Source of the DNA: Hysterangium stoloniferum
Lineage: Eukaryota > Basidiomycota > Agaricomycetes > Hysterangiales > Hysterangiaceae
Direction: 5' to 3'
Length of the DNA stretch: 64,000 bases
Assembly (NCBI GenBank): GCA_015178975.1
Contig: WHVD01000035.1
Coordinates: forward strand, 1-64,000
Shown in pieces: positions 31,848-53,546 of this stretch (position 1 is the first letter of the stretch; the number at the start of each line of letters is the position of its first letter). A program made the translations under genes and the position numbers. Below the pieces are notes generated by a model that made no database searches, was not told where the DNA came from, and saw only the letters and a list, made by a program, of their open reading frames with translations.

Positions 31848-32213
31848 TCAGTCTACATCTATGGGACTGTGCTTTTTCCCCACCTCCTCAACCATCTCCT
31901 CAGGGAGCTCTGTGACCTCCGTGGCAACCCCGTCCTCATCTGACCCGGCATCCTTGGAACTCCTGACTTGCGGCTCTTCATACACATAGCCGCCATACTC
32001 TGCCAGGAATCTCCAAACCTCCTTGTGGAGTCCACACAGTTCCTTCACCACCACAATGTGGACCTTGTTGCTCTTCTGGAGCAACTCATTTTGGGCCTTG
32101 ATGCCCTCGGCGATCGGTCCCAGGACTTCATCCAACCCGGAAAATCTGTTTGACCCGCTGATGTCTTTTGCCCTGGACCCCATGGCCTGCTCGTGAATGA
32201 GCAAGCACCTCAC
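31848..32213 (-). pseudogene. E1: 3' exon of the opposite-strand Zn2Cys6-type gene
   Basis: The minus-strand frame reads HEQAMGSRAKDISGSNRFSG, then LDEVLGPIAEGIKAQNELLQ and LAEYGGYVYEEPQV, with an acidic end (ELPEEMVEEVGKK). It matches the 3' exon of the E2 gene (51703-51188) closely. Only the last Cys of the cysteine cluster remains at 32213; beyond it the sequence switches to a Tc1/mariner transposase. It lies 200 bp after the chromodomain stop, convergent with pol. Confidence 0.82.
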
Positions 32214-32215
32214 CT

Positions 32216-33868: not shown

Positions 33869-34594
33869 TGTTAAGAACTGAAAACTGACTAAATGTCAGT
33901 GGCCGACAGGGACCGATCGGAAGGACTTGGCTTCAGCTATGTGCTGCGCCCTCGCAAATATCCATAGGGTGTCCTTAGATTTCGGGCGGGCGAAGACTAT
34001 TCCTAAAGAGCTCCTTTCGGTGAGATACCGATCGGAACCAAAGGACAAGTTGAGCGTCGGGCCAAGGGGTCGGGGCCAGGAGTGGGCGAGCGCACGCGAA
34101 GGCGGATGGGGGGGATTCTTAGTATGAGACTGTTACAGACATATGAGGGTATTCTGAGTCGATATTCTGATTGCCTAGTAACTACAACTACAGCGGGTTC
34201 ATATACAAGTAACAGGCGTCTAGAAAATACTAATGGGGAGAAGGGTGGAAAACGGCATTAACAATAAGCTTGATTAGAAATGGGAAGTTTATGATTAGTT
34301 CGGAGGCCGATGATAACCGAGAGCGGAATTACGATAGAAGGAAATGGTTCGAGAACTACAAATATAGATAGACATATGTGAAACATAGGATAGGATGGAT
34401 CATGAGAATAAAAGGGATATATCAAAAGTTTAACCAGATAGTACGAGTATTTTTGACTTGGGCGTAAACGGGGTTTGATCGCCGCGAAAGCATACGTCAG
34501 CTTCGGGGGCCGAAGGTCTCCAGTGTGGTAACTTGAATCGTCGATAGGTGGTATTAACCTCGGGGACCAATCGGGTTGCGACACGGTTGTAACA
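33869..34594 (-). repeat. E3 3' LTR (726 bp)
   Basis: Plus strand begins TGTTAAGAACTG and ends GGTTGTAACA. Same length as the 5' LTR, with scattered base differences, many of them C/T or G/A. Confidence 0.95.
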
Positions 34595-34767
34595 GTATCC
34601 CCCCATTTGGCCGAAATCCCAAGGAGGCCGAAATCTAGATCCCGTACGTAAAAACTCGTCAGGTACGGTTTGGTGTGTCAAAACATCATGTGACTCGACA
34701 AAAATTTACATATGAAAATTTGAGGGGTCCTGGCGCTTGAAATTTTGTTTCTCTTCCCTTAACCACC

Positions 34768-35737
34768 ATGACCATAGGCTCGGGGTCGAAACCCTTCCCG
34801 GTTAGGTTAACAGTCACGCCCATGTCGGTCCCGAGTGGTACGGCGAACGCGCAGGAGTGTCGGCGTATACTCGAGCAGAAGAAAAAGGCACATGAAGAGG
34901 AGGAGCGGAAGGAGAAGGAGGAGTTGGCGGCCATCGAGGCCGAGGAGAAGAAACAGGCAGCGGAAGAGGCCGCGCGCAAGCACTGGGAAGCAGTGCTTGC
35001 AAAGAACAAGCAACAGGAGGCTGATCGGGCGCGGGAGGCGACAAAAAAGAAGCGGGAGGGAAAGGTAAGTCGCTCCGGTATCTTTTGCAAATCTTACTGA
35101 CATATATTTGTTAGCGCAAGGCTGCGACGCCTTCGGAGTTGGATGAGGGAGAGGAGGACGAGGAGGATGCACCGGGGCCGTCGAGCCCCAAGGTGGGTTC
35201 GGTTTCCCTAAATAAAAACTTCCCTAAATAATTTTCCTATAGAAACAAAAGCAGGCCCCCAAGGCGGGGCCTGAAAACGACCCTAAGTGCAATCGGTGCA
35301 CGAAATGGGGTGGAACCTGTCATCCCCAGGCCAATGGTTGGGGCCGCACTTGTCAAGAGTGAGCCGATCAGAAGCTTGGGTGTGTCTTCCCGGGGGCCGA
35401 TGGTTCATTCCAGGAGTGACAGGCCGATGCTCTAGAAGAGCAAAACCACCTTATGCGGGCGTACTTCTCGGAGATGAGTCGGTTCTGATACGAGACATTG
35501 CGACAACAAGGGCTCATAACCGAGCAATTGCAACTCTTGGGCGTCGGGCTAGAGAAACAGACCAGTGTTATCGAGTCTCTCAGTGGTCAACTTGAACAGT
35601 ATTTGGAAGTCTCGAGTTGCGATGGGCATGAGATTGGGGTGTCGGAGAAGGTCGGTGAAGCGGTATCGGTGGCTGTCGGTGCGGGGGAGGGTTCGGAGGC
35701 CGGAGAGGAGGGTGAAGTTGTAGAGGAAGAAACTTAG
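34768..35737 (+). pseudogene. E3 opposite-strand gene: coiled coil plus Zn2Cys6-type cluster, 3 exons
   Basis: Exons 34768-35064, 35115-35192 and 35243-35737, separated by two GT-AG introns of exactly 50 nt, both in phase 0. Exon 1 encodes a Lys/Glu/Ala-rich helix of about 65 residues (RILEQKKKAHEEEERKEKEE onward), likely coiled coil. Exon 2 is acidic (ELDEGEEDEEDAPGPSSPK). Exon 3 opens with C-x2-C-x6-C-x10-C-x2-[stop]-x6-C (35288-35383), a fungal Zn(II)2Cys6-like spacing in which TGA 35360-35362 replaces the fifth Cys. A heptad-like helix (LRQQGLITEQLQLLGVGLEK) and acidic tail follow. Two more TGA codons lie in exon 3. The gene converges on pol, whose stop is 104 bp away. The intact ancestor may have been a DNA-binding regulator; that is inference. 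Confidence 0.8.
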
Positions 35738-35840
35738 ATAATAGATATATCATTTTCTCTTTTTTTTTTAAAAAACAAACAAATCATAGCGTGAAAACAT
35801 AAGACATAGTCGGGAAAAGATCGGATACCGCGTGATAGAC

Positions 35841-38800
35841 TTATAAGGAATTGAGAGGACCGGGTTTATTCGGATAAGCTTGGTGAAACCCTAAAACGAT
35901 TTCCAAGGCATTACCGAGCTCGGTAGCTAGGATCCATGAAGTTTCTTCATCTGTACCTTCATAGCCAGCCCATTTGACCAAATAAAGTAGTTTGCATGAG
36001 CGTCGGCGATTGTCAATTTTTGAGTCTAGGATCTCTGATATCTCGAATTCGAGTTCCCCATCAATAATCACGGGTGGAGGTGGTGGTTGTATGTGATCCG
36101 GTATACTGTTAGGAACACAAGGTTCTAACATAGATACATGAAATACCGGGTGCACTGCACGCATGTTGTCAGGGAGCCAAAGTGTCCATGAAAGTGTGCC
36201 GGCTTGTGCTATAACTTCAAAAGGACCTAAATATTTTTCAGAGAGCTTCTTAGAGGGTCTAGTAGTTTGGAAAAACTCGGCTTTAATGAATACTCGGTCT
36301 CCAATCTTAAAGTCAGGAGGCGGAAGTTGGTTCTTATCCGCAGACCGTTGGTATCGTTCTTGAGCCATTGCAATAGTTTTACGAAGTTCTTGATGTAGCT
36401 CGTCAAGGTTTATAACAAAGTCTTGAGCACGGGCGGATGCGAGATCGTGTTCCAGGTGGATTGCGATGTTGGGGTTGTAGCCTTTATTTGCGAAGAAAGG
36501 TGAAATGCCAGTAGTGGCATTTGGTGCGTTGTTATATGCGAATTCGGCTAGCGGTAGTAGTGATTTCCAATTGTCTTGTTGATAGTTGCAATAGACACGG
36601 ATGTATTATTCCAAGGTTTGATTCATGTGTTCAGTTTGGCCATCACCTTCCGGGTGATAGCCGGAAGTGAAGTGTAGCTTCATGTCTAGTGCTTTCCCGA
36701 GTGACCTAAAGAAGTGAGAGACAAACTCGGATCTGCGATCGGATGTGACATGCGACGGAACACCATGTTTGGAAAATACATGGGTGACGAATAATTCAGC
36801 TAACTGTACAGATGTTATTGTGTCATATGTTGGAATGAAAATACTTTGCTTGGAGAGCCGATCCACGACAACTAGGATTGCTGTGTGACCTTTGGATGCC
36901 GGTAGGTGCTCGATGAAATCCATTGAAATCGAGTTCCAAGGTTTTTCCAGTATCGGTAATTGTTTGAGTAGGCCATATGGTTTGTGTTGCTGTGATTTAG
37001 AGCGTAAACACGTAGTACAAGATTTACAATAGTGCTTGACAAAATCTCGGATGCCGGGCCATGTATATTCTCTTCTAATGAGTGAGAGGGTCTTATTGAG
37101 GCCGAAACATCCCGAGATTGGGTGGTCGTGTTTATGTTGTAGGATTCGCAGCCGAAGGGTGTCGGAGTCCGGTACATAAATGCGATTGTCAAGTCTAATG
37201 AAACCTTGTGAGTCTAATGACCATCGGGGTTGATCGGGGTCGGACGGGTTATTGAGGTGTGCTTTGGTGACTGGGTCTAATGGAATTGCCAATAGAATGT
37301 CTTGATGTAATTTTTCGGTATCCATAAGGATAACACTTCGCAAGACTGGATGAATGAGGTAAGTGGCTCGGATAGACGCAGATAATTGTTCCGATGAAAA
37401 CATAGGCTTGAAATTATGCGGATTAACTGTGGCGTAGTCGCTACTCCCCTCTTTAGGATAGACGTCCCATCGTCTAGTCATAGCGTCGGGTTTTCCACCA
37501 AGGTGGCTGGGACGGAACCGAATTACCATGTTGAAAGCAGAGAGGTATTCGGACCATCGAGCTTGTCGACGGGTGAGAAGTTTTGTGGTTGAAAAGTAAA
37601 CTAAATTTTTGTGGTCCCAAGCCTTCCAAATAATGTCGCCATGTCTTGAAAGCTTCAAATATTGCGAGTAGTTCCTTATCGTGAATGTCATAGTTGAGTT
37701 CGGGTGCTGAGAATGTGCGAGACAGAAAAGCTACTGGGTGTACTTCACCATTGGTGTCCAGAATGGACAATATCGCGGCAAGTGCATAGTCTGAAGCATC
37801 AGTTTCCACGATGAGTTGAACGTCTGGTTTCCAGTGCGACAAAATAGGGGCAGATGTAAACACACTTTTCAATTCCTGGAATGCCGATCAGCATTCTTCG
37901 GAGAAAATCCATGGGGCGTCTTTGCGAGTAAGACGAGTGAGCAGAACGGTAATTTTTGAGTAGTTGTGAATGAAACGACAATAAAAATTGGCAAAGCCTA
38001 AAAAGGATTGAATATCCTTAACCTTTTGGGGTTCCAGCCAATCTTGAATGACTTGAATCTTAGAGTTGTCCATGCGGAGACCGTCAGGTCCCATCATAAA
38101 ACCTAAATATTCAACTGTGTCGACATCAAAAGAACATTTTTTACCATTCGCAAAAAGACCATGTTTTTGGAGTCTTCAGAGAACTTCACGAATGTGTTCG
38201 TCATGAAGTGTAGGATCTTCGGAGAATAAGAGGATGTCGTCTAAGTACACAATGACAAAAATGTCGAGGAGGTCGGAAAAGACGTCGTTGATAAAACGTT
38301 GAAAGATCGATGGAGCGTTGGTGAGGCCGAAAGGCATTACTAACCATTCAAAAGAACCATAGCGAGTGCGAAAAGCCATTTTCCATTCTTCGCCTTCGGT
38401 GATCCGAACCAAATGATAGGCATGCTTGAGATCTATCTTTGTATAGATTCGGGCCTTCCGAGGGGCATCAAGTAAATCGGAAATTAGTGGTAATGGGTAC
38501 TTGTCTTTTCGGGTGATCACATTTAGTCCTCGAAAGTCAATGCAAAGTCGAAGGGAACTGTCTTTTTTCCGAATGAATAGGACAGGGGCTCCATAAGGAG
38601 ACTTTGACGGTTGGATGAAACCTATAGCCAAATGTTCGTCCAAGAAATCTTGGATAGCCGATAATTCGGACTGCGAGAGAGGATAAACTGGGCCTAGGGG
38701 CAGATGTGAACCATCTTCAATATCAATTTTCAAATCGTAAGGCCTGTGAGGGGCGAGTTGATCTGCTTTTTGTTTACTGAAGACATCTGCAAATTCATGG

Positions 38801-39503
38801 TATTTTTGGGAACACCTTCCAAATCTGCGATCAGTTTGGCCACTGGGGATGCAAAGCGACCGGTGACTTCGTCAACTTTAAGATTGACTGTAAATGCTCG
38901 GGAGCCATCCAACTTGATGGCTCTCATAAAAGCTGCGGCATTTATTAGAGAGACAGGCGGCGGAGAGCTCGGATTTGCCACGGGGGCCGGAGGTGCTGTA
39001 GAGGCCATATTTGCCAAAACAGGCGGAAATGGACCAGTCATATCGGGTGCCGACAGGGTTCGGAAATGGATATTGCCCAATACCCAATCAATCAACAGAT
39101 TGTAGCGGGTGAGCCAGTTATGTCCTAGAACCACGGAGCAACTCGGGTCCAACTGTGTTACGAAAAACGTAACTGTCTGAAAGGTTCCACACGGGAACCG
39201 AAGTCGGAGTTCGCAGGCTTGCAAGATTACTGAGTTTGAGGTACCATCAAAGAGTCGGAGCGGAATCGGATCTATTGCATAGTTTTTAACTGATTTTTTC
39301 GGGAAAAACTTGTATCTATAAAACAATGGGTTGAACCTGAATCTATGAGAGCTCGAAAAGTGAGGTTTCCGAGAGGTTCCGAAGTAAGATTTATGAACAA
39401 AGAATTAGGATCATACAAGGCGGATGCGTTAAGGTGACAATTTTCCGGTGTGCGAGGAGATTCAACGCAACTCTCCAAATGCACGGAATCCAGAGAGTTG
39501 CTT
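35841..39503 (-). pseudogene. E3 Pol: protease, RT, RNase H, integrase, chromodomain (broken)
   Basis: Reading from about 39500 downward: protease (ALIDSGSTHCFID), linker, RT ([24 protein letters not shown] at 38248-38237), RNase H ([36 protein letters not shown]), integrase (SCTTCLRSK, SISMDFIEHLPASK, DRRSEFVSHFF, GYHPEGDGQTEH), GPF/Y region and chromodomain (LLYLVKWAGYEGTDEETSWI) ending at 35841. Frameshifts lie near 39330-39270, near 38733 and near 37640, where about eight residues are also missing. In-frame stops are TGA at 38176-38178 and about 37888, and TAA at 36606-36608. The gag frame also has one TGA. Compared with E2, the stops stand at Arg or Gln positions. Confidence 0.92.
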
Positions 39504-40800
39504 AATCTTTTTTCGACTCGGAAGCCGGTTTGGCCAGTGGTGAGGCCGTGGCCATATTGGCTGATCGGGCTTTTGAGGCTTTTGGGCATGCAGCGACTCG
39601 GTGTCCGGGATCTGCGCACAACAAACAAAGGTTGTTGTCCATTCGGCGTTGCTTTTCCTGTGGTAGGAGCTTGCCATCGGAGCCGAGTTTGCCAGTTAAG
39701 TCGGGTTTGTCTTTGTCTTGAGACTTATTCGACTGTTTTCCCTTGCCTTTTTTGTCGTTAGCCCCTTTGTTTTTGGACTTTTTATCGGAGTTCGAGTTGC
39801 CACTGTTGTTGGTGTTTTGATTACCAGACTTGTTGGCATTCTTATTGTCCGACGATTTCTTGTCCAAAGGGTTTTTGCGACTAATTTCCGAACGTCATTC
39901 CCAGTATCGGGCATCTGCATTTTGGGCTTTCAGGTGCATGAGAGGGAGGGTCTTCGGCTTGCCGGTCTCCCCTTTGGAAACTTCATCTTTGAGGCGAGAC
40001 GGAAGGCCGGAGTAAAACTGGTAATGGAGGGCCGAATCGCCCCAGTCACAACATGCGGCAAGGTTGTTGAACTGGACGATGTAATCGGTGATGCACTGAG
40101 TGTCTTTCATTTTGAGATTAGAAAGCGCAGTTTCGGCATCACCGGTCTGGTCGTAGGGACCAAAGTTGGTTTCGAGTTCCTCGACAAAGGCATCCCAATC
40201 GTGAAGCCAATCAGGGTCTTCGGAGGTGAGGCCAGAGAATGCGGGTTCAAACCAGGCTGCTACGGAATCCTTAAGGTATGAGAGTGCAAAGTTTACCTTT
40301 CGGTCATCCGTTGCAAATGCAGCCGGGCGGTCCCGAAAGTTGAATCGACATTGCATAAGAAATGTCGGCAATTTCTTCGGGTTTGAGCCAGTGAATGGCT
40401 CGGGCTTGTTGACTCGGGTTTGTCCAGGTTCCTTTTCCTTGATATTGCTTCTAAGGAATTTGTTAAGGGATCCTAGAGTACCTGAAAACAATTCCCATGT
40501 CTCTTCAGGGTCGAGAGCCGGTTTCTTTTTTGCGGACTTCTTGGAACTACTAGCCTGAGGTTGGTCGCCATCCTCGGGTTTGTGTTCCAAAACTGGTTGA
40601 TTGTTAATCTCTTCAGTTGCTTCGGGTTCGGTTGCTTCAGTTACTTCTTCAGCATCGCCGGTAATCTCCACAAAGCGAGATTCTTCGGAGGTTTCTGGTA
40701 GCGGGGTTCTCTGAGTAGCTCGGGCTGTATACAGGAAAGGAGACTTGAGAGTGGAAGATTCTGCTTCGCCGCTTGGCTTGGCATTTTTTCTCGGAGGCAT
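39502..40800 (-). pseudogene. E3 Gag (one internal stop)
   Basis: Starts MPPRKNAKPSGEAESS at 40800, 38 bp inside the 5' LTR. It has a capsid-like region (FTGSNPKKLPTFLMQCRFNF ... DWDAFVEELETNFGPYD), then YWE and a TGA at 39895-39897, where E1 has an Arg codon. The same frame resumes with a Lys/Asn/Ser-rich spacer and a CCHC knuckle CLLCADPGHRVAACP, ending at 39502. About 431 codons in all, the same as E1 Gag. The lack of other damage suggests recent loss. Confidence 0.9.
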
Positions 40801-40838
40801 GATTAAACAGAAAATGTGAGTGTGAAATCAGAATATAC

Positions 40839-41564
40839 TGTTAAGAACTGAAAACTGACTAAATGTCGGTGGCCGACAGGGACCAATCAGAAGGACTTGG
40901 CTTCAGCTTATGTGCTGCGCCCTTGCAAATATCCGTAGGGTGTCCTTAGATTTCAGGTGGGCGAAGACTAATCCTAAAGAGCTCCTTTCAGTGAGATACC
41001 GATCGGAACCGAAGGACAAGTTGAGCGTCGGGCCAAGGGGTCAGGGCCGGGAGTGGGCAAGCACATGCGAAGGTGGATGGGGGGATTCTTAGTATGAGAC
41101 TGTTACAGACGTATGAGGGTATTCTGAGTCGATATTCTGATTGCCTAGTAACTACAACTACAGCGGGTTCATATACAAGTAACAGGCGTCTAGAAAATAC
41201 TAATGGGGAGAAGGGTGGAAAATGGCATTAACAATAAGCTTGATTAGAAACGGGAAGTTTATGAGGAGTTCGGAGGCCGATGATAACCGAGAGCAGAATT
41301 ACGATAAAAGGAAATGGTTCGAGAACTACAAATATAGATAGACATATGTGAAACATAGGATAGGATGGATCATGAGAATAAAAGGGACGTATCAAAAGTT
41401 TAACCAGATAGTACGAGTATTTTTGACATGGGCGTAAACGGGGTTTGATCGCCGTGAAAGCATACGTCAGCTTCGGGGGCCGAAGGTCTCTGGTGTGGTA
41501 ACTTGAATCGTCGATAGGTGGTATTAACGTCGGGGACCGATCGGGTTGCGACATGGTCGTAACA
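40839..41564 (-). repeat. E3 5' LTR (726 bp)
   Basis: Plus strand begins TGTTAAGAACTG and ends GGTCGTAACA. It lies 38 bp upstream of the gag start on the minus strand. Confidence 0.95.
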
Positions 41565-41569
41565 CAAGG

Positions 41570-42748
41570 TATGTGAACAAGAAAATAATAGGATTAACCA
41601 TTCTGGAGTATATGGGTCAAGTTGATATGGGAACAGGTACCAAAACACAATATCAAGTGAATATATGTATGTCAAAACATAATCAGGAACAAACTGGGTC
41701 ACAGATTAATAGGTTTCTAGAGAATATGGGAAGTCCATATGAGGTCCAGGTCAGAAGCCACCCTTATAGCAAGAAAGGGCTATTACTGGGAGGATCTGGG
41801 GCCCAGGTCCTAACAACACAATACAATGAGACTAAGATGGGGAAAAAACAAGAACAATAAGCCCCAATGAGAATGGATATTGGATACTAAGAAGTCAGCT
41901 GAGATATATTGATTGGGTACAATATTATAGCTGAGAATATGGTCAGCATGGTTCTAACAATATTCATTTTCTTAGGTGGTGTTTTTTTTTTTCTGTATTA
42001 TTATAGCTTTCTCTTTGGTTGTGTCATGTAACAGGTAAATTGGATATCAATTACTCAAGCCATCAATTAAACTGTCATGCTACAGTCCATTTTGCCACCC
42101 TCAATACAATCTGGGTTCAATTAGTCTACCTTTCATTCTCTAATCCTACAGAGACAATTGCTATGATGCATGTATTCGACATACAAACATTACTGCTTGA
42201 CCCCTATTGACCTTACTAGCTTTCTAAACTATTGATGTTTGATACATGTAGTTAGGATAGCTATTTGTGAATGAACAGTCAATACTCAAGGTGTATATCT
42301 TTTCGTAGCTAAATTAGTTTAAGACAATTGTAACTGTGTATGCACAGTTATGCACAGCAACACTATATTCTGATCATGTGTAGTTATTGCATAGCAACTA
42401 TGATTTTATACACAGTAATGTGCAGTTGTGCAGCATCATTTTATGTATATAAACAGCAGAGCTGAATTATGAAATATAAGCCTTTTGAACCATCTTAAAC
42501 TACACAGTATCATTCCATTTGCATTCATGCATCTTATTACACATATTCCAGGTTTACAGGATCTTATGTTTCTCAGGTTAATTCTCCTTGTCATTAATGT
42601 GACTTTCCTTAGTTACACAATCCAAATAAAAGCTATTCATTCCCTTTCCAATATTCTATTCTACCTTTAAAACTCACAAATAAGTACCCTAAATTAATAG
42701 ACTACTGACACACTCAGCCCATTCATATATCATAGTTGTTGCCTTTAA
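41570..42748. other. Repeat D remainder and AT-rich spacer
   Basis: The first 300 bp or so continue repeat D (41546-41860 is an open frame without motif). The rest, to the solo LTR at 42749, is AT-rich with no supported gene. Confidence 0.4.
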
Positions 42749-43307
42749 TGTTAAGTGCTGTGTCGGAAACTTATTCTAGAACTATCGGAAAGTCACCGGG
42801 AAGTCGGAACCTATCAGATAGGGTCAGGACATTGGCTTCAGCTTATGTGCTGCGCCTCTATGCAAACGCTCAAAGTCCTTAATTTCAGAGGTGAGACTTA
42901 CGATGGAAGATACAGATATTCAGAGTTCCAAAGAGTTCCGAATATCGAGCGTACAGAAAGACAGAAGAGGGAATAAGAAACTAAGTCGATATCAGATCTA
43001 AAGTAAAGTACAACTGCGCGGAAACTAATATAAGTCTTCTCGTTATTGTACTACAAACTAAGACCATAATAAGATGGAAATAGGAGTATTTCTAAAATGG
43101 AAATACAATAAGACATATTGGGGAGACAATATTCTGAAACGGGAATATAATAGACAAATGAGTGAATACTTGTCAATGGACAAATTACCAAATGTGGAAG
43201 AATGCAGAACAAGGGAAGAATGTGGAAGATACGGTAACTATGATGTTCCGTAGTCAGAGATCGGAAGTCGGATATTGAAACATCCAGGAACGGGTCGTAA
43301 CATTTAA
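42744..43307 (-). repeat. Solo LTR, gypsy family C, TSD TTTAA
   Basis: LTR 42749-43302 (554 bp); plus strand begins TGTTAAGTGCTGTGTCGG and ends GGGTCGTAACA. Exact target duplication TTTAA at 42744-42748 and 43303-43307. On the minus strand it begins TGTTACGACCC, like the LTR starts of families A and B, so it belongs to the same gypsy group. Confidence 0.93.
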
Positions 43308-43718
43308 GTTGCTGCTAAGTACTTAAGGATTCTCAACAAAAGCAATACATCACAGGTTGGGGTGGGGGTGGATCAAGTCTATCAAGTGAGAACTGTGCAT
43401 CCATAGCCCTAGTTTGTTGTAGTTTAGTATCTGTTAGGTATTGTTTTCAGACCTCCTACATGTGATCTCCATTGTAACTCACTTGTGACTTGCTCCCCAA
43501 GTTGACCACATATTGTGCATCAGTGTCTTGTCTTCACCTCATGTATTACTTTTCACCAACCATCTTTACTTCTTGGATATCCATTTTTACACCTTTCCTT
43601 ATTTCCAGTTCAGGTATCAGTTCCCTTTGTTCCTTTCATGATTCCTTTTGCTCCATCTATGATTCTTTATTCCACTTGTGACTTGTTTGCTCTAGTTTAG
43701 TATTTCATTTTGCTCTTT
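43308..43718. other. Unannotated spacer
   Basis: Pyrimidine-rich from 43450 on. Two overlapping short open frames (43490-43700) lack motifs. Nothing supported. Confidence 0.4.
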
Positions 43719-43723
43719 ATTAG

Positions 43724-45977
43724 TGTTACAACTGGAATTCCCACCAGACTCTGGGCACTAACTTATATGCACCCGTGCCTTATACACACCAATTGTCAGT
43801 TTACTGGAATTCCCACCGGACTCCGTACATCAGACTTGTCCACATTTGACTTCGTTACATCATGTATCAGTCACCAGAATACCCGCTGTAAGTTTGTTAC
43901 TAGGAAAAGACCTAATAACCTGTGCGCAACGGTCAAGTCTTTATGACGGTCACTGACACAGTCGTTCTTGAAACCAGTCTATAACCAAACACACTCGGAG
44001 CGAGAGGCTAGAGATCCGACCTTGGATGACATAATAGAAGATGAATACAAAAGGCTGACATAAGCCCAATGTCGTAGAATGTAGAACTTCAACAATAAGA
44101 GACACTACAGTATCCCTTACTGGTTGTAGGAGTGAGACTGAGAGTAAGACTTAAGAGATTGTCCTTAAGAATGAGCTTCGAAATGAGATACAACGAAATT
44201 GCTTGTCCAATAGTGGGCAAAAGAGAGGCCCTTATATACATGAGAGAGCACAGGTCAAATCAAACATCTACAAACAACGACACAATAATGATGCAATATG
44301 GTGTGAGTCATCTCTGAGTCATCACAATAGGAGTGTTAGTAAAGCTGTGAACAATAATAGGGGGAGGCTGTGCTGAACAATAAGAGAATGACAAACAAAA
44401 GATGAGATCAGACATGTGATACAGATAAATGGGGAAACACAATAGAACAATAGGGGAAGTGAGTCAGACAATAGGGATGATGGAGTAATAGAAGTGATGG
44501 CTGATGAAACATTGATGATATGAGCCAGAAACACTCAAGAATCCCATGATAATGTGTCACCCTCAAATGCTATGCTTGATTTCAAAATCTTGACAATATT
44601 ACCAATCGATGAACCGAGATTGGACGTATTGTGTTCCTAGTTTTGCAGTATAAGGAGGGGATGCAATCAATCACCATTTTAGAACCAGGTGGTGAGTAGG
44701 CTCCACAACCATGCAAGGAACACGAAACGACGTCAACGACCTCGACGAGGCTCTACTTGACTTCCCTCTGGAACCGGGGTCCTGAATAACTTGGGTCCTC
44801 TGTGATCTCCTATTGGAGTGAACGTTGCCATGTAACAGATTCCCGATGACGGTGGGGAACAGTCCTGCTGGAACACTCGGTCGAATCAATAGTGGAGGAT
44901 TTTGGAGGAGCCATCATAGTGTTCTATACAAATGAAGGCAGGATCGTCTGGAGCATATGGGAGTCGAATACCTTGTCGACAGAGGAAATGATGGTATTTC
45001 TTGGAGGAGCATGAGTGGGCTGGTAGGGGCTTGGAAATGATGTCTGAGGATGAGGAGAAGCGAGATGTTATTGGCTGGAGTTCTATTTGGGAGTGAAGAG
45101 TCAGTTTTGAGTAGGAACTGAGGGTTACTTTGGAGGACGATGCAGTGTTGAACATGATGGAGTTTTGGTCGTCTGTTTGATGAAACTGATTTGGCTGTGT
45201 AGAAGTCGTCTTGAGTGCCAAAGTATATATAAGAATTTGTGCTGTGACGTGACTTGAAACTATAGCCATATTAGTCTCTTTCCGATTGAACTCTCTACAC
45301 CGCTGGACTCCGTCCCTGTCTATGTCTAACCTCATCCCACATGTCAGTCACTGGACCCCACTTGGAAAACCCGTCATCCCTCTAACTGAGCCCCATTCCC
45401 ATTTTAGTCAAATGACCTGTCACAATTTGGACTCCACTCCCACTCCATTTCCCATTATGGTTTATGACCTGTCACGATTTAGACTCCACTCCGTTCCATT
45501 CCATTCCTAACACCAAATTTGGTGTTTACTTATCTTGTTTTATGTTTGCTAGTTTCATTTTCATTATTACTGGATTTGATATTTTATTCATTCCATAGTC
45601 TATATAGTCTGGCAGATGTTGTACATACAATCCAGTCAGAAAATCGGCTTAGATTCTCCCCAGTAATCTAGTACATTTTCCACTCTAAACTCCTCCTTAA
45701 ATTATACCGCTCTTGCTAGTCGGAGCCCACGGGCTCCGACAGATCTATCTTTCAACCTCTGACTTATTTATCTCAACTCCCTGACCTCTCGACCCATGAC
45801 CTCCCGACCCACAACCCCACAACCCACAAACTCCACCCGGACTCCCTGGGATTCCTGTCCACCCATTTGAAATTGGACAACACGATCTCACAAGGGCACA
45901 GCCTATAAGCTGAAGCCAAGTCCTACAGGATTTCCTGCGGGTTTCTCCGGAAACCCTCCATGTACACACCCTTAACA
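43724..45977 (+). repeat. E2 5' LTR (family A), split by an insertion
   Basis: Begins TGTTACAACTGGAATTCC and ends CACCCTTAACA. The LTR is interrupted at 43886/45300 by a 1.4-kb insertion; without it the LTR is about 840 bp, like the 3' LTR without its own insertion. Confidence 0.9.
43887..45299 (-). mobile_element. Unclassified 1.4-kb insertion in the E2 5' LTR
   Basis: Bounded by TGTAAGTTTG at the left and CTCTCTACA at the right, giving TG...CA ends with TGTA/TACA inverted tips, and flanked by CCGC on both sides (43883-43886, 45300-45303). The minus strand holds open frames (44886 to about 45290 and 44671-44889) with no domain I recognise. No internal LTR pair or transposase was found. It may be a long solo LTR or a non-autonomous element. 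Confidence 0.6.
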
Positions 45978-46011
45978 GTATTTTCTGACTACGACTTGCA
46001 GATTGTTCAAT

Positions 46012-47103
46012 ATGCCACCAAGAAGAAAAGCGCACACACAGGCATCATTACCTGGATTGTCGACTCTTCATTCCCCATTAACTTTGTATACCAGCCAGAC
46101 ACTCGTGAACCAGCCAGAAGTCATGGAAGAAGCCTGTATCAAAGAAGTCCCAGAAAACCAGGACAAATCTGAGCATGAGGACGAGTCCATGGCCCCCAAC
46201 AAGGGCAAAGGTGTCGAAAATCCTCCATCTAACGATCAACTGCCACTTTCGGATCCCACCTCTGAGTATTTAGCAATCACTTTAGAAAGGTTGATGAATC
46301 ATATGCTCAGAGAAGGCAAAAAGAAAGATCTGGAACCCCCGCAGTCAAAAGTCAATGCTCCAGAACCCTTCATGGGTTCCAACCCAAACAAACTCTCTAC
46401 TTTCCTCATACAATGTCACTTCAATTTCCACGATCAATCTGCTGCATTCTCCATGGACTCCTGAAAAGTCAACTACACACTTTCATACTTGTCAGGATCC
46501 ACATTGAAATGGTTCGAACTGGCTTTTAGCGGACTTGCTGAGGAAGAGCTGCTTTGGCTTGAAGATTCAGATGCTTTTGTTGAGGAGCTTGAAACCAACT
46601 TTCGCCCATATGACCTGACCGGAGAAGCCGAGAACAGTCTCACAAATCTTCATATGAAGGACATGCAGCACATCACAGACTATATTGTCCAATTCAATAA
46701 TTATGCAGCTCATTGTCAGTGGGGCAATCCTGCTCTCTGCCACCAATTCTACGCTGGTCTGCTGTCCCGCCTTAAAGACAAAGTCTTGAAAGGAGAAGAT
46801 GGCGAGCCAAAAGCCCTGTCGTGTATGTGCCTTAAGGCTCAAAATGTGGATGCATGCTATTGGGAATGTCATGCAGAAGTTGCCTGTGAGACCTCTGCGC
46901 ACAAAGTAAACAAGTCCACGGCCAATAAAACCAACAACAACAACTTGTCAACCAGCAACCAGAACTCCACATAATCTGACAAGAAGAATGATAAAAAGTC
47001 TTCAAACAACAACAACAACAACAACAACAACAAAGGTCGACAGTCCAGCAAGCAACCAGAAAACCCAACCTCACAGGCAAACTCGGACCTGATGGCAAAT
47101 TGA
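46012..47103 (+). pseudogene. E2 Gag (two stops, C-terminal part deleted)
   Basis: Starts MPPRRKAHTQASLPG 34 bp after the 5' LTR and is clearly the same protein as E1 Gag. Stops: TGA at 46462-46464 where E1 has CGA (SMDS-RKVNY), and TAA at 46972-46974 where E1 has CAA. After an Asn run (encoded by AAC repeats, 47008-47032) the sequence leaves gag at about 47103 without reaching the CCHC knuckle, and joins the linker that precedes RT. Confidence 0.9.
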
Positions 47104-50100
47104 CCCCATGGCCTTCCAGGCACCTGCCTGCAGTCTTGAGGACTCCTGTGATCCCTACAGCACCCATGGCTTCCCTGGAACCCATGGCACCTCCGTCTAT
47201 TTCTCTGATTAATGCTGCAGCTTTTATTAGGGCTACAAAAATGGATGGGTCCCAGGTGTTCACTATCAATTTAAAAATTGATGAAGCAACTGGTCATTTT
47301 TCAACCCCAGTATCCGAATCTGAGCAAGCCACTGACCTGGAAGGTGTCCCAGAGAAATATCATGACTTTGCAGATGTTTTTAGTAAGTGGAAAGCTGACT
47401 GGCTTCCACCCCACAGAGAGTATGCCTTAAAATCGACCTCAAAGAAGGCACCCAGCCACCCCTAGGACATATTTACCTGCTCTCATCCATGGAACTTTCT
47501 GCAATCTGTGATTTCCTGGATGAACATTTGTCCATAGGTTTTATCAGATCCTCAAAGTCCCCTTTTGGAGCACCTGTTCTGTCTGTCAGAAAAAAGGATG
47601 AGACTATGTGTTGATTTCAGAGGACTCAATGCTGTCACAAACAAGGATAAGTATCCACTTCCACTTATATCCGATCTACTTGATGCTCCACAGAATGCCC
47701 AGATTTACACCAAAATAGACCTCAAACACGCCTATCACTTGGTCTGGATCTCTGTGGGTGATGAATGGAAAACCACTTTTAGAACCCACTGTGGGGCCTT
47801 TGAGTGGTTGGTGATGGATGCCCTTTGGACTCACCAATGCTCCGTCTGTTTTTCAACATTTTATCAATGACATTTTCTCCGACATGCTCGATGTATGTGT
47901 CATTGTTTACTTGGATGACATTCTTATCTACTCCGAGAATCCCGCGGAACATGACAAACAAGTCCATGAAGTTCTCTGGAGACTCAGACAACATGGTTTA
48001 TTCACAAATGGTAAAAAATATACTTTTGACACAAACTCTGTGGAATACCTGGGCTTCATAATGGGACGACAGACTTTGCATGGATGAAACTAAAGTACAA
48101 GTCATCAAAGATTGGCCAGAACCCCGAAAAGTTAAAGATATACAATCCTTCCTCGGCTTTGCCAATTTTTATTGATGGTTTATCTGCAGATATTCCAACA
48201 TCACGGTTCCCCTTAACCATCTTCCATGTAAGGATACTCTGTGGAATTTTAATGATAAGTGTCAAAAAACTTTCAACCTTTTTAAAAAATTCTTTTTCTT
48301 CAGCTCCTATTCTGTCGCACTGGAAACCGGACTTCCCACTCATTGTTGAAATGGACAACTCGGACTATGCACTTGGAGCCATTCTGTCTATCCAGGACTC
48401 CAACGGAGAAGTCCACCCCATGGCCTTTCTGTCCCGGAATTTTACTGGACCAGAGCTCAATTAAGACATTCATGATAAGGAACTCCTGGCAATTTTTTCA
48501 GCTTTCAAAATGTGGCGACACTATTTGGAAGGCTTAGGAACTCTGATTGACATTGTAACAGATCACAAAAACCTGGAATACTTTTCTACTACAAAACTTT
48601 TGACCCACCGGCTGGCCCGCCGGTCTGAATACCTATCCGCTTTCAATATGACTATCCATTTTCGACCCGGCCATCTTGGTGGCAAACCTGACACTTTAAC
48701 TAGACGATAAGACATCTATCCTAAAGAGGGGAGCAACAACTACACCATGGTAACCCTGCATAACCCATTTTCACGAATCAGCAACTTACCACATCAGTCC
48801 ACAGAACTTTCCTCATCCATCCCATTGTCCGTGGAATTATCATTATGGATATTGAGAAGTTACATCAAGATATTCTATCAGAAATTCTGCTAGACCCGAT
48901 AACTAAAGCACACTTTGACAATCCCGTGGACCCCGATCAACCCTGGTGGTCTCTTGATCAGCACGGTTTCATTAGACTTGACAATCATATCTATGTATCG
49001 GACTCCAATGGCCTCCACCTCAGGATCCTTCAGTACAAACATGATCATCCACTCTCTGGACATTTCGGGTACAACAAAACTCTATAATTAATAAGAAGAG
49101 AATATACTTGGCCCGGACTCCATGAATTTGTTAAGCACTATTGTAAATCTTGCACTACTTGTCCACACTCAAAATCTCAGTGATACAAGCCATATGGCCT
49201 TTTGAAACAACTCCCGGTACTGGAACACCTGTGGAATTCTATCTCTATGGATTTCATTGAACACCTACTGGATTCCGAAGGCTTTTCAGCCATTCTAGTT
49301 GTTGTTGACAGATTCTCAAAACAAGGTATATTCATCCCTACACATGATACAATTACATTCATGCAGTTAGCGGAACTTTTTATTATCCACATATTTTCCA
49401 AGCATGGAGTTCCGTCCCACATGACTTCCGATCGAGGATCAGAGTTCGTATCTCACTTCTTTAGATCCCTTGGGAAATCCTTGGACATGAAATTACATTT
49501 CATGTCCAGACATCACCCAGAAGGTGACGGACAAACTGAACCTGTCAATCAGACATTGGAACAATATCTCCATGTATATTGCAATTATCAACAGGACAAT
49601 TGGAAATCCTTATTACCACTTGCAGAATTTGCTTACAACAATGCCCCCTTGGCCACTACTGGTGTTTCCCCATTCTTTGCAAATAAAGGATATAATCCAA
49701 ATATTACAGTACATCCAGAATGAAATCTCACCTCCGCCCGTGCTCAAGAGTTCACCATGGACCTCCATGAGCTCCATGAGGAACTCCATGAGCTCCACGA
49801 GGAACTCCAGACTGCAATAAAGTCTTCCCAAGAGCAATATCAACATTCAGCGGACAAACACCGGATCCTGCCACCCAATTTCAAGATTGGCAATTGTGTT
49901 TTTGTCAAAGCTCAGTTCTTTCAGGCTACCTGTCCATCAAAAAAGCTTGCTGAAAAATATTTAGGTCCGTTTGAAATAATCACACAAGTAGGTTCAGTTT
50001 CTTGGACTCTACAGCTTCTGGATAGCATGCATGTGGTACACCCAGTATTTCATGTTTCTATGTTAGAACCTTGTACTGCTAACACTATCCCGGATTGTGT

Positions 50101-50989
50101 GCAATCTCCGCCCCCCTCCAGTCATTATTGACAGAGAACCCGAGTTTGAAATCTCACAAATTTTAGATTCGAAAATCGACAAGCATCGATGCACTTGTAA
50201 ACTGCTTTACTTGGTCAAGTGGGCAGGTGTGAGAGATACTGCGAAATATACTCTGAATTACTGCATAGTCCAGAAGAGCCTACACTATATTTCCATTATT
50301 ATTTCTATTTTCTCTCTATTTTATCATACACATATATTTAGTTCGACAGCCTATGCATTCAGTACATTGACTCTTGTGGGTGCATATGCACCAGACTTAT
50401 GTATTCTAGCACCGGTAGTTAGAACTCAGACACTTTTTACCCCACAACCACGACTTACCCAGACACCCAGTTAGTGTCCTGTAAGTTGTGATTGGGGTAT
50501 TGTCTCGACTGTCACAGATGGGCTTTAACTACTAGCGCAATCAGAGCTTCGAACTATACTAGTTGAAACTCAAACCATTTTCTCAATCTGCGCAGACTCA
50601 TCCACACTACTCTGTTATTTGACTCTCTCATTATTCTCTTCAACACTCAAGCAGTCATTCAGAATCATACTTTACAGTCGATTCTCCTTTATTCATTTTA
50701 GCTCTCTATTCTACTTTAGATAGCTAATTCATATTGAACTAAACAGTCAATAGGTGTTTGGTCTGTATTAGACTTAGATAGTCAATACATTGTCGTGTCG
50801 TACCTAAATGGTCAATATTCTTCGTATATGGAACAGTTAGAACTTTCACCACTCTTCACAGTGGGTTATGAGGGTACTGATGAAGAAACCTCATGGATCT
50901 TGGCCACGGAACTCAGTAATGCCATGGAAATCGTTACTGACTTTCATACAGCTTACCCACTCAAACCCGGACCACTATTGTCTCTCTGA
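47104..50989 (+). pseudogene. E2 Pol: RT, RNase H, integrase, chromodomain (broken, protease deleted)
   Basis: Begins in the linker (PPSISLINAAAFIRATKMDG), then RT ([24 protein letters not shown] at 47908-47919), RNase H (DNSDYALGAILSIQDSNGEV), integrase (zinc region HDHPLSGHFGYNKTL; core ISMDFIEHLLDSEGF, MTSDRGSEFVSHFF, HHPEGDGQTEP), the GPF region and the first half of the chromodomain (LLYLVKWAG). A 633-bp solo LTR follows, then the second half (YEGTDEETSWILATE) ending at 50987-50989. Frameshifts lie near 47815, 48080, 48470-48510 and 49085-49200. There is no protease, so gag and pol could not mature. Confidence 0.9.
50223..50865 (+). repeat. Solo LTR inside the E2 chromodomain
   Basis: LTR 50228-50860 (633 bp) begins TGTGAGAGATAC and ends CTCTTCACA, with TGTGA/TCACA inverted tips. 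The flanking pentamers are GCAGG (50223-50227) and GTGGG (50861-50865). E1 has GCGGG here, so both copies look like decayed versions of one CpG-containing target. A diverged inverted relative lies at 55024-55679. Confidence 0.88.
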
Positions 50990-51187
50990 CCACACTCCAC
51001 GGACCCTGTGTTACGTTTGGACTCATTTTCATTATTCCCTGTCACCTTATGTCTCTCTTTGCTTTTAGAGGTTCTGACATGTCTTTCAAGTCCTTAAGCA
51101 GATTTTCTGCAGATTTTCTGCAGACTTATGATTTTTATGTTTTTCACACTTTACTTTTATTTTCAAATTTATTAAACTTTTATATTT

Positions 51188-52163
51188 CTATTCATCTACA
51201 TTGATGGGGCTGTCTTTTTTCCCTACCTCAGCTTTCCCCACCTCATTCATCTCCTCAGGGAGCTCTGCTATCTCCATGGGCACCCCATCCTCATCCGAAC
51301 TGGCATCCTTGGAATGCCCAATCTGTGGCTCCTCATAAACATAGCCGCCGAACTCTGCCAGGAACTTCCAAAACTCCGAGCAGAGCCCACAGAGTTCATT
51401 CACTATCACTATATGCACTTTGTTGCCCTTCCTAAGCAACTCGTTTTGGGCCTCAATGCCCTCAGTGATCCACCCCAAAACATCATCCAGTCCTGAGATC
51501 CCGTATGACCCACTGATGTCCCATGCCACAGACCCCGTGGGCTGCTCATGAACCAGTGAGCACCTCGCTTTGAGGTGCACACACTGGAAGCAGCCTGGTC
51601 CCTGCCTGGGCTTTCGATTACAATCTGTGTTCTGGTCATTGCAACCGGAACACCGTGGGTTGTTCCGTGTTGGTAGGCGGACTGGTGCTGCTTTCCTTGC
51701 TTTCTGTTTGGTGGTTAGCTTCCCAGAAAATCCTACAGACCTGAGACTCACTTTCTGTGGGCTCTCCGGCTCCCCCTCAGACTCAGACTCGACATCTGCT
51801 GCCTTGCACTGAAAAAAACCAAGTCAGTTAAGTTGATATGTGGAACAGTGGAACTTACCTTTCCCACAGCAACTGCAGCCCTGTCCGCAGCCACTCAGGC
51901 TTTCTCCATGGCCACCATGCAGCCTCCTCCTCATCTCTCTTCCTCTGCCTCTCAGCCTCTTCCTCTGTGGCCAATGCTGCCTGGTACTCTCTGTCCAAGG
52001 CCTCCTCAACCTCCTTGGCCTCCTTTTCTGCTTCTTCTCATTGTCAGTGCTGTTCCTCTCACTGTGCCAGAATCTGGGCCGTGGTGAGAGGCACCCGATA
52101 TGGAGTGCCTGTGGAAGGCCTGGCGATCAGCATAGGTTTTTGCGGCATCGGTTTTGGTCCCAT
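51188..52163 (-). pseudogene. E2 opposite-strand gene: coiled coil plus Zn2Cys6 cluster, 3 exons
   Basis: Exon 1 from ATG 52163 to 51859, intron 51858-51809 (50 nt), exon 2 51808-51752, intron 51751-51704 (48 nt), exon 3 51703-51188; introns are GT-AG. Exon 1 encodes ITMGPKPMP-like sequence matching E3, then a Glu/Ala/Arg-rich helix (EALDREYQAALATEEEAERQ) with three TGA codons at Arg-type positions and one frameshift. Exon 2 is acidic. Exon 3 is open and holds C-x2-C-x6-C-x9-C-x2-C-x6-C (51652-51560), the exact fungal Zn(II)2Cys6 spacing, then helical segments (GLDDVLGWITEGIEAQNELL) and an acidic tail. It converges on pol 199 bp from the chromodomain stop. Same arrangement and intron positions as in E3. 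Likely a regulator or DNA-binding partner; unproven. Confidence 0.82.
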
Positions 52164-52717
52164 AGTGATGATGGGGGTAATAAAGAAGAAGAAAATTCAT
52201 TTTTTCAATTTTTTATATAGGCTTGTCGCGTCTGAACCTTACCTTCTAGATCATGTGACTCTTTGACACAAACGTGTAACTAACATCACTTTTGACACAT
52301 GTGCATAGCCAATAAAAACCTTATCAAGTTCTAGAGCCTCTTTGGGACTTCAGCATAAAGGGAGGGTACTGTTACGACCAGAATTCCTGCTGGACTCCGG
52401 GCACTAACCTATACGCACCTGCACCCTATATGCACCAATTGTCAGTTTACTGGAATTCCCGCCAGACTCTGTACATCAGACTTGCCCACATTCAACTTTG
52501 TTACATCATGTATCAGTCACCAGAATACCTGCCAGACTCTGTCCATGTCTATGTCTGACCTCGTCCCACACATCAGTCACCAGACCCTGCTCGGAAAACC
52601 CATCATGTTAAATGTGACCTGTGACTTACTGTGACACGTGACACACTCAAGTCTGAGGAAAGTTGTTACTATTCAGGTCACTAACTACAAGCTTATATAT
52701 GTTATATATCAGTAGGC

Positions 52718-52832
52718 TTGTCAGCTGTCAGAAGTGACAGCTGGTTGACAGCTGTCAGAAGTGACAGCTGATTGACAGCTTGAATGGAAACTGACAGCTG
52801 GAATACAAACTGACAGCTGATTGACAGCTGTC
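52718..52832. repeat. Cluster of CAGCTG palindromes
   Basis: At least seven CAGCTG palindromes, most within TGACAGCTG and some in the longer palindrome TTGACAGCTGTCA, in about 115 bp. It could be a protein-binding cluster or a decayed tandem repeat. Confidence 0.75.
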
Positions 52833-52868
52833 ATGGGAAATGAACAGGGAATACTCTGGAACATGCTG

Positions 52869-52903
52869 GAAGCTTCTAGAAGCTTCTAGAAGGTTCCAGA
52901 AGG
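52869..52903. promoter_or_regulatory. Heat-shock-element-like array, 7 pentamers
   Basis: Seven consecutive 5-bp steps alternate GAAnn and TTCnn without a break. This is the arrangement bound by heat shock factor trimers in eukaryotes (established for the family). It lies in the short insertion inside the E2 3' LTR. Whether it is bound here is unknown; the stretch is also a short tandem of a palindromic decamer, so chance origin is possible. Confidence 0.5.
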
Positions 52904-53546
52904 TCTTGGAGACAGTGGAGGCAGTTTTAATACATCATCCCTCTAACTGGGCCCCATTCCCATTTTAGTCAAATGACCTGTCATGATTTGGACTCCGCTC
53001 CCACTCCGTTTCCCATTATGGTTGATGACCTGTCACAATTCGGACTCCACTCCATTCTGTTCTGTTCCTAACACCAAATTTGGTGTTTACTTATCTCATT
53101 TTATGTTTGCTAGTTTCATTTTCATTATTACTGGATTTGGTATGTTATTCATTCCACAATCTATATAGTCTGGCAGATGTTGTACATACATACAATCCAG
53201 TCAGAAAATTGGCTTAGGTTCTCCCCAGTAATCTAGTACATTTTCTGCTCTAAACTCCTCCTTAAATTATACCACTCTCGCTAGTTGGAGCCCACAGGCT
53301 CTGACGCATCTATCTCTCAACCTCCAACTTATTTATCTCGACTCCCTGACCTCTTGACCCACAACCTCCTGACCCACAACCCCTCGACCCACGAATTCAA
53401 CCCAGACTCCCCGGGATTCCCGTCTGCCTGTTTGAAATTGACAACATGATCTCACGAGGGCGCAGCCTATAACCTGAAGCCAAGTCCTACCAGATTTCCC
53501 GTGGGTTTCTCTGGAAACCCTCCGTGTATACACCCTTAACAATTAG

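What the first reader, a model, noticed from the sequence alone, without database searches (positions are those of the whole stretch)
34768..52163. Spliced opposite-strand Zn2Cys6-type gene carried by chromodomain gypsy elements
E2 (52163-51188, minus) and E3 (34768-35737, plus) both carry, between the integrase chromodomain and the 3' LTR and convergent to pol, a gene with two introns of 48-50 nt at matching places. The product is a Glu/Lys/Ala helix, an acidic linker, a cysteine pattern C-x2-C-x6-C-x9/10-C-x2-C-x6-C, a second helical region and an acidic tail. E1 keeps the 3' exon. E2 and E3 are different LTR families, so the gene is an old or shared passenger. An intron-bearing gene must be transcribed from its own promoter, since introns would be lost if copied through the spliced antisense RNA. 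It may regulate host or element chromatin.
Basis: partly seen in the sequence, partly recalled or inferred. Interest (0 to 1): 0.9.

Follow-up and report, generated by a model that had tools for sequence, protein, structure and literature searches.

The report
Antisense zinc-cluster gene in fungal retrotransposons
Two families of jumping DNA in a truffle-like fungus carry, on the opposite strand, a small gene with two introns that evolution has kept working in many copies, and the elements are peppered with paired CGG motifs of the kind that such a protein might recognise.

Summary
The window lies in the Hysterangium stoloniferum assembly. E2- and E3-type elements exist in many copies, with the gene antisense between pol and the 3' LTR. 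A complete young E2-type element (L039: LTRs 821/821 identical, gag and pol open, chromodomain over the Pfam cut-off) carries it intact: TATA box, ATG, three exons, two GT-AG introns, 294 aa. Between subfamilies the antisense frame has dN/dS 0.10-0.28 (one of 13 E3-type pairs 0.39), dS up to 2.1; two of three overlapping sense frames look neutral, the third partly constrained. No intronless copy was seen among the copies scored. All six Cys are kept in 26 of 26 aligned E2-type rows (two rows left out beforehand have a broken motif). Pfam Zn_clus stays below cut-off, so Zn2Cys6 membership is not met. New lead: CGG-N3-CCG (both types) and CGG-N5-CCG (E2-type) inverted repeats are about tenfold in excess across the elements, also in pol against synonymous-codon shuffles; some direct CGG pairs are in excess too. 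Best reading: an accessory DNA-binding regulator of its own element, comparable to the antisense genes of plant Grande/Retand and of Boty (brtn). Expression and binding are untested. New variant of a known kind.

The parts
34768..35064 (+). E3 antisense gene, exon 1 (Glu/Lys/Ala-rich, helix-like)
35065..35114 (+). E3 gene intron 1, 50 nt, GT-AG, phase 0
   Evidence: 22 of 22 copies keep GT and AG
35115..35192 (+). E3 gene exon 2 (acidic linker)
35193..35242 (+). E3 gene intron 2, 50 nt, GT-AG, phase 0
35243..35737 (+). E3 gene exon 3 (Cys motif, second helix-like part, acidic tail); three in-frame stops in this copy
34697..34720 (+). Place of the E3 gene's TATA-like box; CATATAA in 15 of 17 aligned E3-type rows, changed in the window copy
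33869..34594 (-). E3 3' LTR
   Evidence: 95.2% to the other LTR
40839..41564 (-). E3 5' LTR
35841..40827 (-). E3 gag-pol remnants (gag, integrase, Tf2-1-like SH3, chromodomain just under the Pfam cut-off)
51859..52163 (-). E2 antisense gene exon 1; three stops and a length change in this copy
51809..51858 (-). E2 gene intron 1, 50 nt
51752..51808 (-). E2 gene exon 2, 57 nt
51704..51751 (-). E2 gene intron 2, 48 nt with the AG acceptor
51188..51703 (-). E2 gene exon 3, open, with C-x2-C-x6-C-x9-C-x2-C-x6-C at 51652-51560
52205..52222 (-). TATA box of the E2 gene, about 50 nt before the ATG
52370..53541 (+). E2 3' LTR; its U3 begins next to the gene's promoter
45303..45977 (+). Main part of the E2 5' LTR (a first part matches at 43721-43886)
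31525..32227 (-). E1 relic of the gene (part of exon 3 and the stretch after it)
34301..39607 (.). 13 CGG-N3-CCG sites dispersed over E3 (34301, 34504, 35391, 35694, 35822, 37048, 37163, 38075, 38981, 39044, 39192, 39519, 39599); about 1.3 expected

Best explanation
Shown from sequence: an accessory protein-coding gene of chromodomain gypsy elements, on the strand opposite gag-pol, between pol and the 3' LTR, with a TATA-type promoter stretch just inside the 3' LTR, two short introns and long-standing purifying selection. The introns lie in reverse in the gag-pol RNA and so cannot be spliced from it, which explains why copies keep them (inference from general knowledge). Inferred: the product is nuclear (basic clusters near the exon junctions), pairs through its N-terminal helix, binds DNA through a zinc cluster of six cysteines and recognises the CGG..CCG inverted repeats scattered over its own element and present in U3. 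In the young E2-type LTR, U3 lies upstream of the sense TATA box in the 5' LTR and next to the antisense promoter in the 3' LTR, so one array could control both. The likely effect is activation of the element or its protection from silencing.
For: Many copies. Young element L039 with intact gene, gag and pol. Of 40 young pol ends found without regard to the gene, 30 have an exon-3 match without stop at the expected place and 2 more have a fully open gene. dN/dS 0.04-0.28 in 15 of 15 E2-type pairs and 0.10-0.22 in 12 of 13 E3-type pairs between subfamilies, third positions dominating. Six Cys in 26 of 26 E2-type rows. E2-type promoter flank 0-7% diverged against 6-45% for introns in the 13 pairs that are not both young. 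No intronless copy: 0 of 37 and 0 of 30 full-length matches. CGG-N3-CCG 23 and CGG-N5-CCG 23 in L039 (2.4 expected each), CGG-N3-CCG 14 in L023 (1.6) and 13 in window E3 (1.3); in L039 pol 11 vs 1.75 and 15 vs 1.99, none of 1000 synonymous-codon shuffles reaching, in all three frames. Public gene models P0001, P0002 and P0004 join exons at one or both of these introns (by eye).
Against: No expression data. Zn_clus below cut-off (best 15.2 of 21 bits). Structure model useless (pLDDT 42.7). Within the E3 subfamily there is no excess of silent changes among shared variants (transitions N:S 38:19 and 22:13, 577:290 possible), and dN/dS is 0.39, 0.45 and 0.86 for three pairs: expected after insertion, but no support. 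The E3-type flank is less conserved (5-22%). Motif classes were chosen after looking at the LTR. The CGG excess is not limited to N3/N5 inverted pairs: L039 also has direct pairs at N4, N6-N9 and N15, inverted N7 and N14, and CCG-N0-, N8- and N9-CGG in excess; E3 also direct N4 and N7. Inside the gene itself N5 sites are not in excess (2 vs 1.65). In 59 kb of other sequence CGG-N2-5-CCG (23 vs 12.5) and CCG-N2-5-CGG (31 vs 13.5) are both about twofold up. The ORF controls are weak: five window ORFs outside E1-E3, 2 seen, 3.4 expected.
Confidence: 0.58

Rival explanations
1. The protein works on RNA or cDNA: a small nucleocapsid-like or coiled-coil chaperone for packaging, reverse transcription or nuclear import, and the CGG..CCG repeats are small RNA hairpins.
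For: Cys modules and basic clusters also occur in RNA-binding proteins (general knowledge). CGG-N3/5-CCG can pair in RNA. The sites lie in the genomic RNA, in gag-pol as well.
Against: The stem does not extend: the bases next to the triplets pair in 5 of 23 N3 and 4 of 23 N5 sites (by eye), about chance. CCG-N3/N5-CGG would pair equally and is not in excess. The gag already has a weak CCHC match.
Confidence: 0.16
2. The protein is directed at the host: it changes expression of host genes or host chromatin, and the element benefits indirectly.
For: Transcription-factor-like make-up; this model needs no sites in the element.
Against: Dense CGG..CCG sites lie in the elements themselves. Host genes could not be examined, so this is not excluded.
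Confidence: 0.16
3. The functional product is the antisense RNA (double-stranded RNA, self-limitation of copy number), and the reading frame is a by-product.
For: Convergent transcription would give double-stranded RNA; proposed for plant antisense ORFs (PMC7264820, passages).
Against: dN/dS 0.10-0.28, conserved Cys codons, phase-0 introns and open frames point to selection on a protein. A double role is possible.
Confidence: 0.05
4. Chance open frame opposite a sense gene or a GC-rich stretch.
For: L039 has overlapping sense ORFs of 202, 156 and 166 aa. One of them (1500-1997 in gene orientation, overlapping exon 1, intron 1 and exon 2) has dN/dS 0.34-0.53 and is unbroken in 5 of 9 rows.
Against: The other two have 0.8-1.2 and 1.3-3.6 and are unbroken in 2 and 4 of 9 rows. 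The antisense frame is constrained over its whole length, with matching splice sites in two families.
Confidence: 0.02

Closest known systems
Antisense accessory ORFs of plant gypsy elements (Grande gene23, RIRE2, Retand TRP28)
   Same: Antisense gene between pol and 3' LTR, kept in most copies; Grande's product is nuclear and has its own promoter; Retand's TRP28 is predicted to bind DNA (PMC11963269 abstract and passages; PMC7264820 passages).
   Different: Retand is a non-chromovirus lineage. The word 'intron' does not occur in either main text. TRP28 is another domain. Here: chromodomain elements of a basidiomycete, two conserved introns, a six-Cys motif, dispersed CGG inverted repeats.
brtn of Boty-like elements in Botrytis cinerea (Zhao et al. 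2011, Virology; paper not held; known from citing passages in PMC7264820, PMC8365987, PMC4227169)
   Same: Additional antisense gene in a fungal gypsy element whose gag-pol has a chromodomain (PMC4227169 passage); closest precedent by host kingdom and element type.
   Different: Ascomycete host.
HBZ of HTLV-1
   Same: Antisense gene of a retroelement with a nuclear product (PMC11963269 passage); its splicing and bZIP nature are recalled.
   Different: Retrovirus; the antisense promoter lies inside the 3' LTR (PMC7264820 passage). No homology claimed.
VANC anti-silencing proteins of Arabidopsis VANDAL elements
   Same: Element-encoded, sequence-specific protein whose targets differ between related elements and often form tandem repeats; it induces loss of DNA methylation (PMC5735166 abstract).
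   Different: DNA transposons (recalled); VANC21 sits in non-coding regions (section heading). Anti-silencing is only a hypothesis here.
Fungal Zn2Cys6 transcription factors (Pfam PF00172)
   Same: Cys spacing fits the class, and pairs of CGG triplets are its classic target (recalled).
   Different: Below the Pfam cut-off; no PDB relative by sequence.

Membership tests
Antisense accessory ORF (aORF-3R) of LTR retrotransposons | Coding region between pol and 3' LTR, antisense to gag-pol | tested here: met
   L039: pol ends 6748, gene 7944-6962 minus, 3' LTR 8155-8975
Antisense accessory ORF (aORF-3R) of LTR retrotransposons | Present in most copies of the family, conserved like other element proteins | tested here: met
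   40 pol ends examined; dN/dS 0.14 for the gene, 0.24 pol, 0.41 gag in the one pair compared
Antisense accessory ORF (aORF-3R) of LTR retrotransposons | Transcribed from its own promoter | not testable with these tools
   TATA stretch and conserved flank only
Fungal Zn2Cys6 family (PF00172) | C-x2-C-x6-C-x5-12-C-x2-C-x6-8-C spacing (recalled) | tested here: met
Fungal Zn2Cys6 family (PF00172) | Score over the Pfam cut-off (21 bits) | tested here: not met
   best 15.2 bits, E 0.024; for exon 3: 11.9, 8.3 bits and no match for two E3-type copies
Fungal Zn2Cys6 family (PF00172) | Six Cys bind two zinc ions; the domain binds CGG triplets | not testable with these tools
   indirect only: CGG..CCG excess
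Chromovirus (chromodomain gypsy) | Ty3-type gag-pol with C-terminal chromodomain | tested here: met
   L039 pol: protease, RT, RNase H, integrase, Tf2-1-like SH3, Chromo 27.7 bits, cut-off 25.1
Boty brtn | Homologous protein | not tested
   sequence not held; three protein searches returned only H. stoloniferum
VANC-like anti-silencing system | Protein binds dispersed motifs in its own element | tested here: inconclusive
   motifs in excess; binding untested
VANC-like anti-silencing system | Loss of DNA methylation on the element | not testable with these tools
   needs methylation data

The most novel reading that the evidence does not exclude
The gene encodes an element-specific DNA-binding protein whose targets, CGG-N3-CCG and CGG-N5-CCG in E2-type and mostly YCGG-N3-CCGR in E3-type elements, have been spread by selection over the whole element, coding parts included, and protein and targets have diverged together between families. 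It would be a self-recognition system of an LTR retrotransposon, acting as activator or as protection from silencing, built independently of Arabidopsis VANC and kept with its introns because it is copied only as antisense.
Probability: 0.32. Interest if true: 0.88.

Novelty: new variant of a known kind. Interest (0 to 1): 0.73.

Why it matters
Why some LTR retrotransposons keep antisense accessory genes is open; the passages read say that their roles are not known. Here the gene is at least as constrained as gag and pol in the one pair compared, has a definable DNA-binding-like core, many open copies and a candidate target motif. The question becomes testable with one binding assay and strand-specific RNA. 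If true, it adds an LTR element to the few mobile elements known to mark and manage their own copies.

Tried and rejected
Chance ORF and sense-strand gene: rejected (one sense frame is partly constrained, told above). Antisense RNA as sole function: rejected by dN/dS. Recent capture by one element: rejected, E2- and E3-type share the gene. Processed (intronless) copies: none among the 40 places scored of 546 and of 254 candidates, so splicing itself is not shown. Relatives in other organisms: none in three protein searches; the search needs shared 5-letter words, scored only part of the candidates in two of them, and element genes are often masked. Within-subfamily variation: no sign of constraint. 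AF2 on three rows failed. PDB by sequence: only weak matches to the helical part, none for the Cys region. NCBIfam: weak helix matches. Rfam: none on L039. Literature: 10 searches. Those on Zn2Cys6 or zinc-cluster genes in LTR elements (11: no paper; 49: 11 listed, judged by listing) show no such case. PMC5408684, PMC7550596 and PMC2864245 were only searched for terms.

Rows dropped before counts: one search left out duplicate loci, L034 and matches under 1000 bases. One search left out L010, L012, L013, L017 and L018 by script; L013 and L017 have a broken Cys motif, so 26 of 26 overstates. One search left out three copies. The 11 young copies (11 of 11 open) were picked mainly from rows without stop in exon 3 and so are biased; the pol-end census was made without regard to the gene. 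Its matching to one search was by eye. In one search, 110 of 150 rows show no stop (by eye); these are the best 150 of 1272 candidates.
Full report
What was checked. The two genes were read directly. E3: exons 34768-35064, 35115-35192, 35243-35737. E2 (minus): 52163-51859, 51808-51752, 51703-51188. Introns are GT-AG and 48-50 nt. Both window copies are damaged, E2 in exon 1 and E3 in exon 3; E1 keeps part of exon 3. E3 has LTRs at 33869-34594 and 40839-41564, 95.2% identical.

Where it is. The genome has 111 Mb in 554 contigs. Proteins P0003 and P0004 of H. stoloniferum come from contigs of 1976920 and 991917 bases, exactly the lengths of contigs C334 and C135, so the window is from that assembly (Hysterangiales).

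Copies. DNA searches scored 40 E3-type and 40 E2-type copies out of 272 and 694 first-look candidates. In 22 aligned E3-type copies both introns keep GT and AG in 22 of 22, the ATG is kept in 21 of 22, and 5 of 22 are open from end to end. An E2-type exon-3 search scored 150 of 1272 candidates, 110 without stop (by eye).

A complete young element. L039 has LTRs of 821 bp, 100% identical, flanked by CAGCT on both sides, a gag ORF of 437 aa, a pol ORF of 1304 aa with protease, RT, RNase H, integrase, Tf2-1-like SH3 and chromodomain, and the antisense gene of 294 aa (exons 7944-7618, 7568-7512, 7462-6962). Eleven of 11 young copies, picked mainly for an open exon 3, have the whole gene open, the TATA stretch and all splice sites; of 26 aligned E2-type rows 23 have the TATA stretch. 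A search with the pol end, made without regard to the gene, gave 40 places. At 30 of them one search lists an exon-3 match without stop at the expected distance. Of 9 others fetched 2 are fully open, 2 carry the gene with indels and stops, 3 are cut by contig ends, 1 has only the 3' part and 1 has lost most of the gene; 1 lies off its contig. Gene-less derivatives therefore exist, but no gene-less lineage was seen here.

Selection. Pairwise Nei-Gojobori values for 15 E2-type pairs are 0.04-0.28; L039 against L011 has dN 0.147, dS 1.37 and changes by codon position 38/45/126. Of 13 E3-type pairs between subfamilies 12 are 0.10-0.22 and one, with a shifted exon 3, is 0.39; three pairs inside the subfamily are 0.39, 0.45 and 0.86. 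Variation inside the E3 subfamily shows no excess of silent changes among shared variants, as expected for decay after insertion. E2-type flanks between LTR edge and gene are 0-7% diverged, introns 6-45% in the 13 pairs that are not both young; for E3-type pairs the flank is 5-22% and introns 5-62%. For L039 against window E2 the gene gives 0.14 (dS 1.06), pol 0.24 (dS 0.34) and gag 0.41 (dS 0.50); the unequal dS makes this a rough yardstick. Of three sense ORFs that overlap the gene, two look neutral and one is partly constrained.

Homology of the two types. BLASTP E-values for one comparison are 5e-6 and 2e-5; hhalign gives probability 95.1, E 3e-8. In the five-row alignment six Cys and 46 other columns are invariant. 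Intron 1 falls between Gly-Lys and Arg-Lys, intron 2 right after Ser-Pro-(Gln)-Lys, in both types (by eye); the aligner sets these low-complexity stretches several columns apart, so the match rests on context, order and phase. The six Cys are kept in 26 of 26 E2-type rows (five loci left out beforehand, two of them with a broken motif) and in 14-15 of 16-17 E3-type rows.

Introns. A spliced query found 37 full-length E2-type matches of 333-338 bases for 237 query bases and 30 full-length E3-type matches with 75-103 extra bases: no intronless copy among the 40 places scored each time. This fits copying through the sense RNA but does not show that splicing happens. Public models join the same exons: P0001 across both introns, P0004 across intron 1, P0002 across intron 2 (by eye).

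The protein. Charged helix-like N-terminus, basic clusters on either side of an acidic linker, Cys motif, second helix-like part, acidic tail (read from sequence). Pfam Zn_clus is the best family for the E2-type Cys region and for one of two E3-type ones but below cut-off, with a C-x2-C-x6-C half aligned to the second half of the profile. Membership is not claimed. The structure model failed.

Candidate targets. CGGACTCCG occurs 8 times in one LTR plus the internal part of L039, more often than any 9-mer in 100 shuffles (largest 4), and related stretches recur in U3 of young and old E2-type families (by eye). L039 has 23 CGG-N3-CCG and 23 CGG-N5-CCG where 2.4 each are expected; L023 (E3-type) has 14 CGG-N3-CCG (1.6 expected) and window E3 13 (1.3); CCG-N3-CGG counts are 4, 0 and 0. 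In L039 pol, 11 and 15 sites stand against 1.75 and 1.99 in 1000 synonymous-codon shuffles, none reaching; in gag 2 (19 shuffles reach) and 5 (none); in the gene 5 (11 reach) and 2 (529 reach). Sites lie in all three pol frames. An ORF of 1108 aa in L023 has 8 CGG-N3-CCG against 0.86; of 13 long ORFs in six E3-type loci all 13 exceed expectation for N2-5 and 9 have at most 10 of 200 shuffles reaching.

Limits of this lead. The motif class was chosen after a look at the LTR. A full spacing profile shows that inverted N3 (both types) and N5 (L039) stand out most among inverted pairs, but also an excess in L039 of direct pairs at N4, N6-N9 and N15, inverted N7 and N14, and CCG-N0-, N8- and N9-CGG; in E3 of direct N4 and N7. 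So CGG triplets are arranged at preferred distances, not only as one palindrome. Control sequence of 59 kb has a symmetrical twofold excess (N2-5: 23 vs 12.5 and 31 vs 13.5); the orientation ratio of the elements (56:14, 28:5, 24:6) differs from it with Fisher P 2.7e-5, 1.1e-4 and 1.2e-3. Window E1 and E2 have lost most CpG and show 1-2 sites per class. In L023 sites prefer T or C before and A after the pair.

Mechanism. Binding of CGG pairs by zinc-cluster dimers is textbook knowledge (recalled). With such sites over the element and the gene under selection, recognition of its own element in the nucleus is the most likely role. In the young E2-type LTR a sense TATA box lies at position 463, downstream of the U3 sites; the same scan found none in the E3 LTR. 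Activation, self-restraint and protection from silencing cannot be told apart. Stops in old copies are mostly TGA, which would fit C-to-T decay, so methylation of the elements and a use for protection are plausible but untested.

Known kinds. [quoted passage not shown]). What seems new, within the searches named, is the combination: basidiomycete chromodomain elements, two conserved introns, a six-Cys core and dispersed, regularly spaced CGG pairs.

Noticed in passing
window 45977-50228 against 50863-52370; L039 3518-6628 and 6625-8376: Between the young element and window E2, pol has dS 0.34 but the antisense gene 1.06, with a step in identity near the end of pol. Gene plus 3' end may have been exchanged between families.
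   Followed up: partly
window 43887-45302: The 5' LTR of E2 seems split by an insertion of about 1.4 kb.
   Followed up: no
window 7266-7991 and 27321-27519: Relics of an E3-like LTR (75% and about 80-83%).
   Followed up: no
window 15187-20209 and 20207-25389: Head-to-tail duplication of about 5 kb, about 89% identical, with a further partial copy at 59290-62220 (72%).
   Followed up: no
G000 contigs such as C16, C25, C33, C103, C545: Several copies of the young E2-type family lie within 2 kb of a contig end, as if this recent family breaks the assembly.
   Followed up: no
L037: One stretch carries an open E3-type copy and an E2-type copy of the gene about 2 kb apart.
   Followed up: partly
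P0001-P0004: Copies of the gene were annotated in public as host hypothetical proteins, some apparently joined to unrelated sequence.
   Followed up: partly
L039 877-8154: CGG pairs at other spacings (direct N4, N6-N9, N15; inverted N7, N14; CCG-N0-CGG) are also in excess; meaning unknown.
   Followed up: partly
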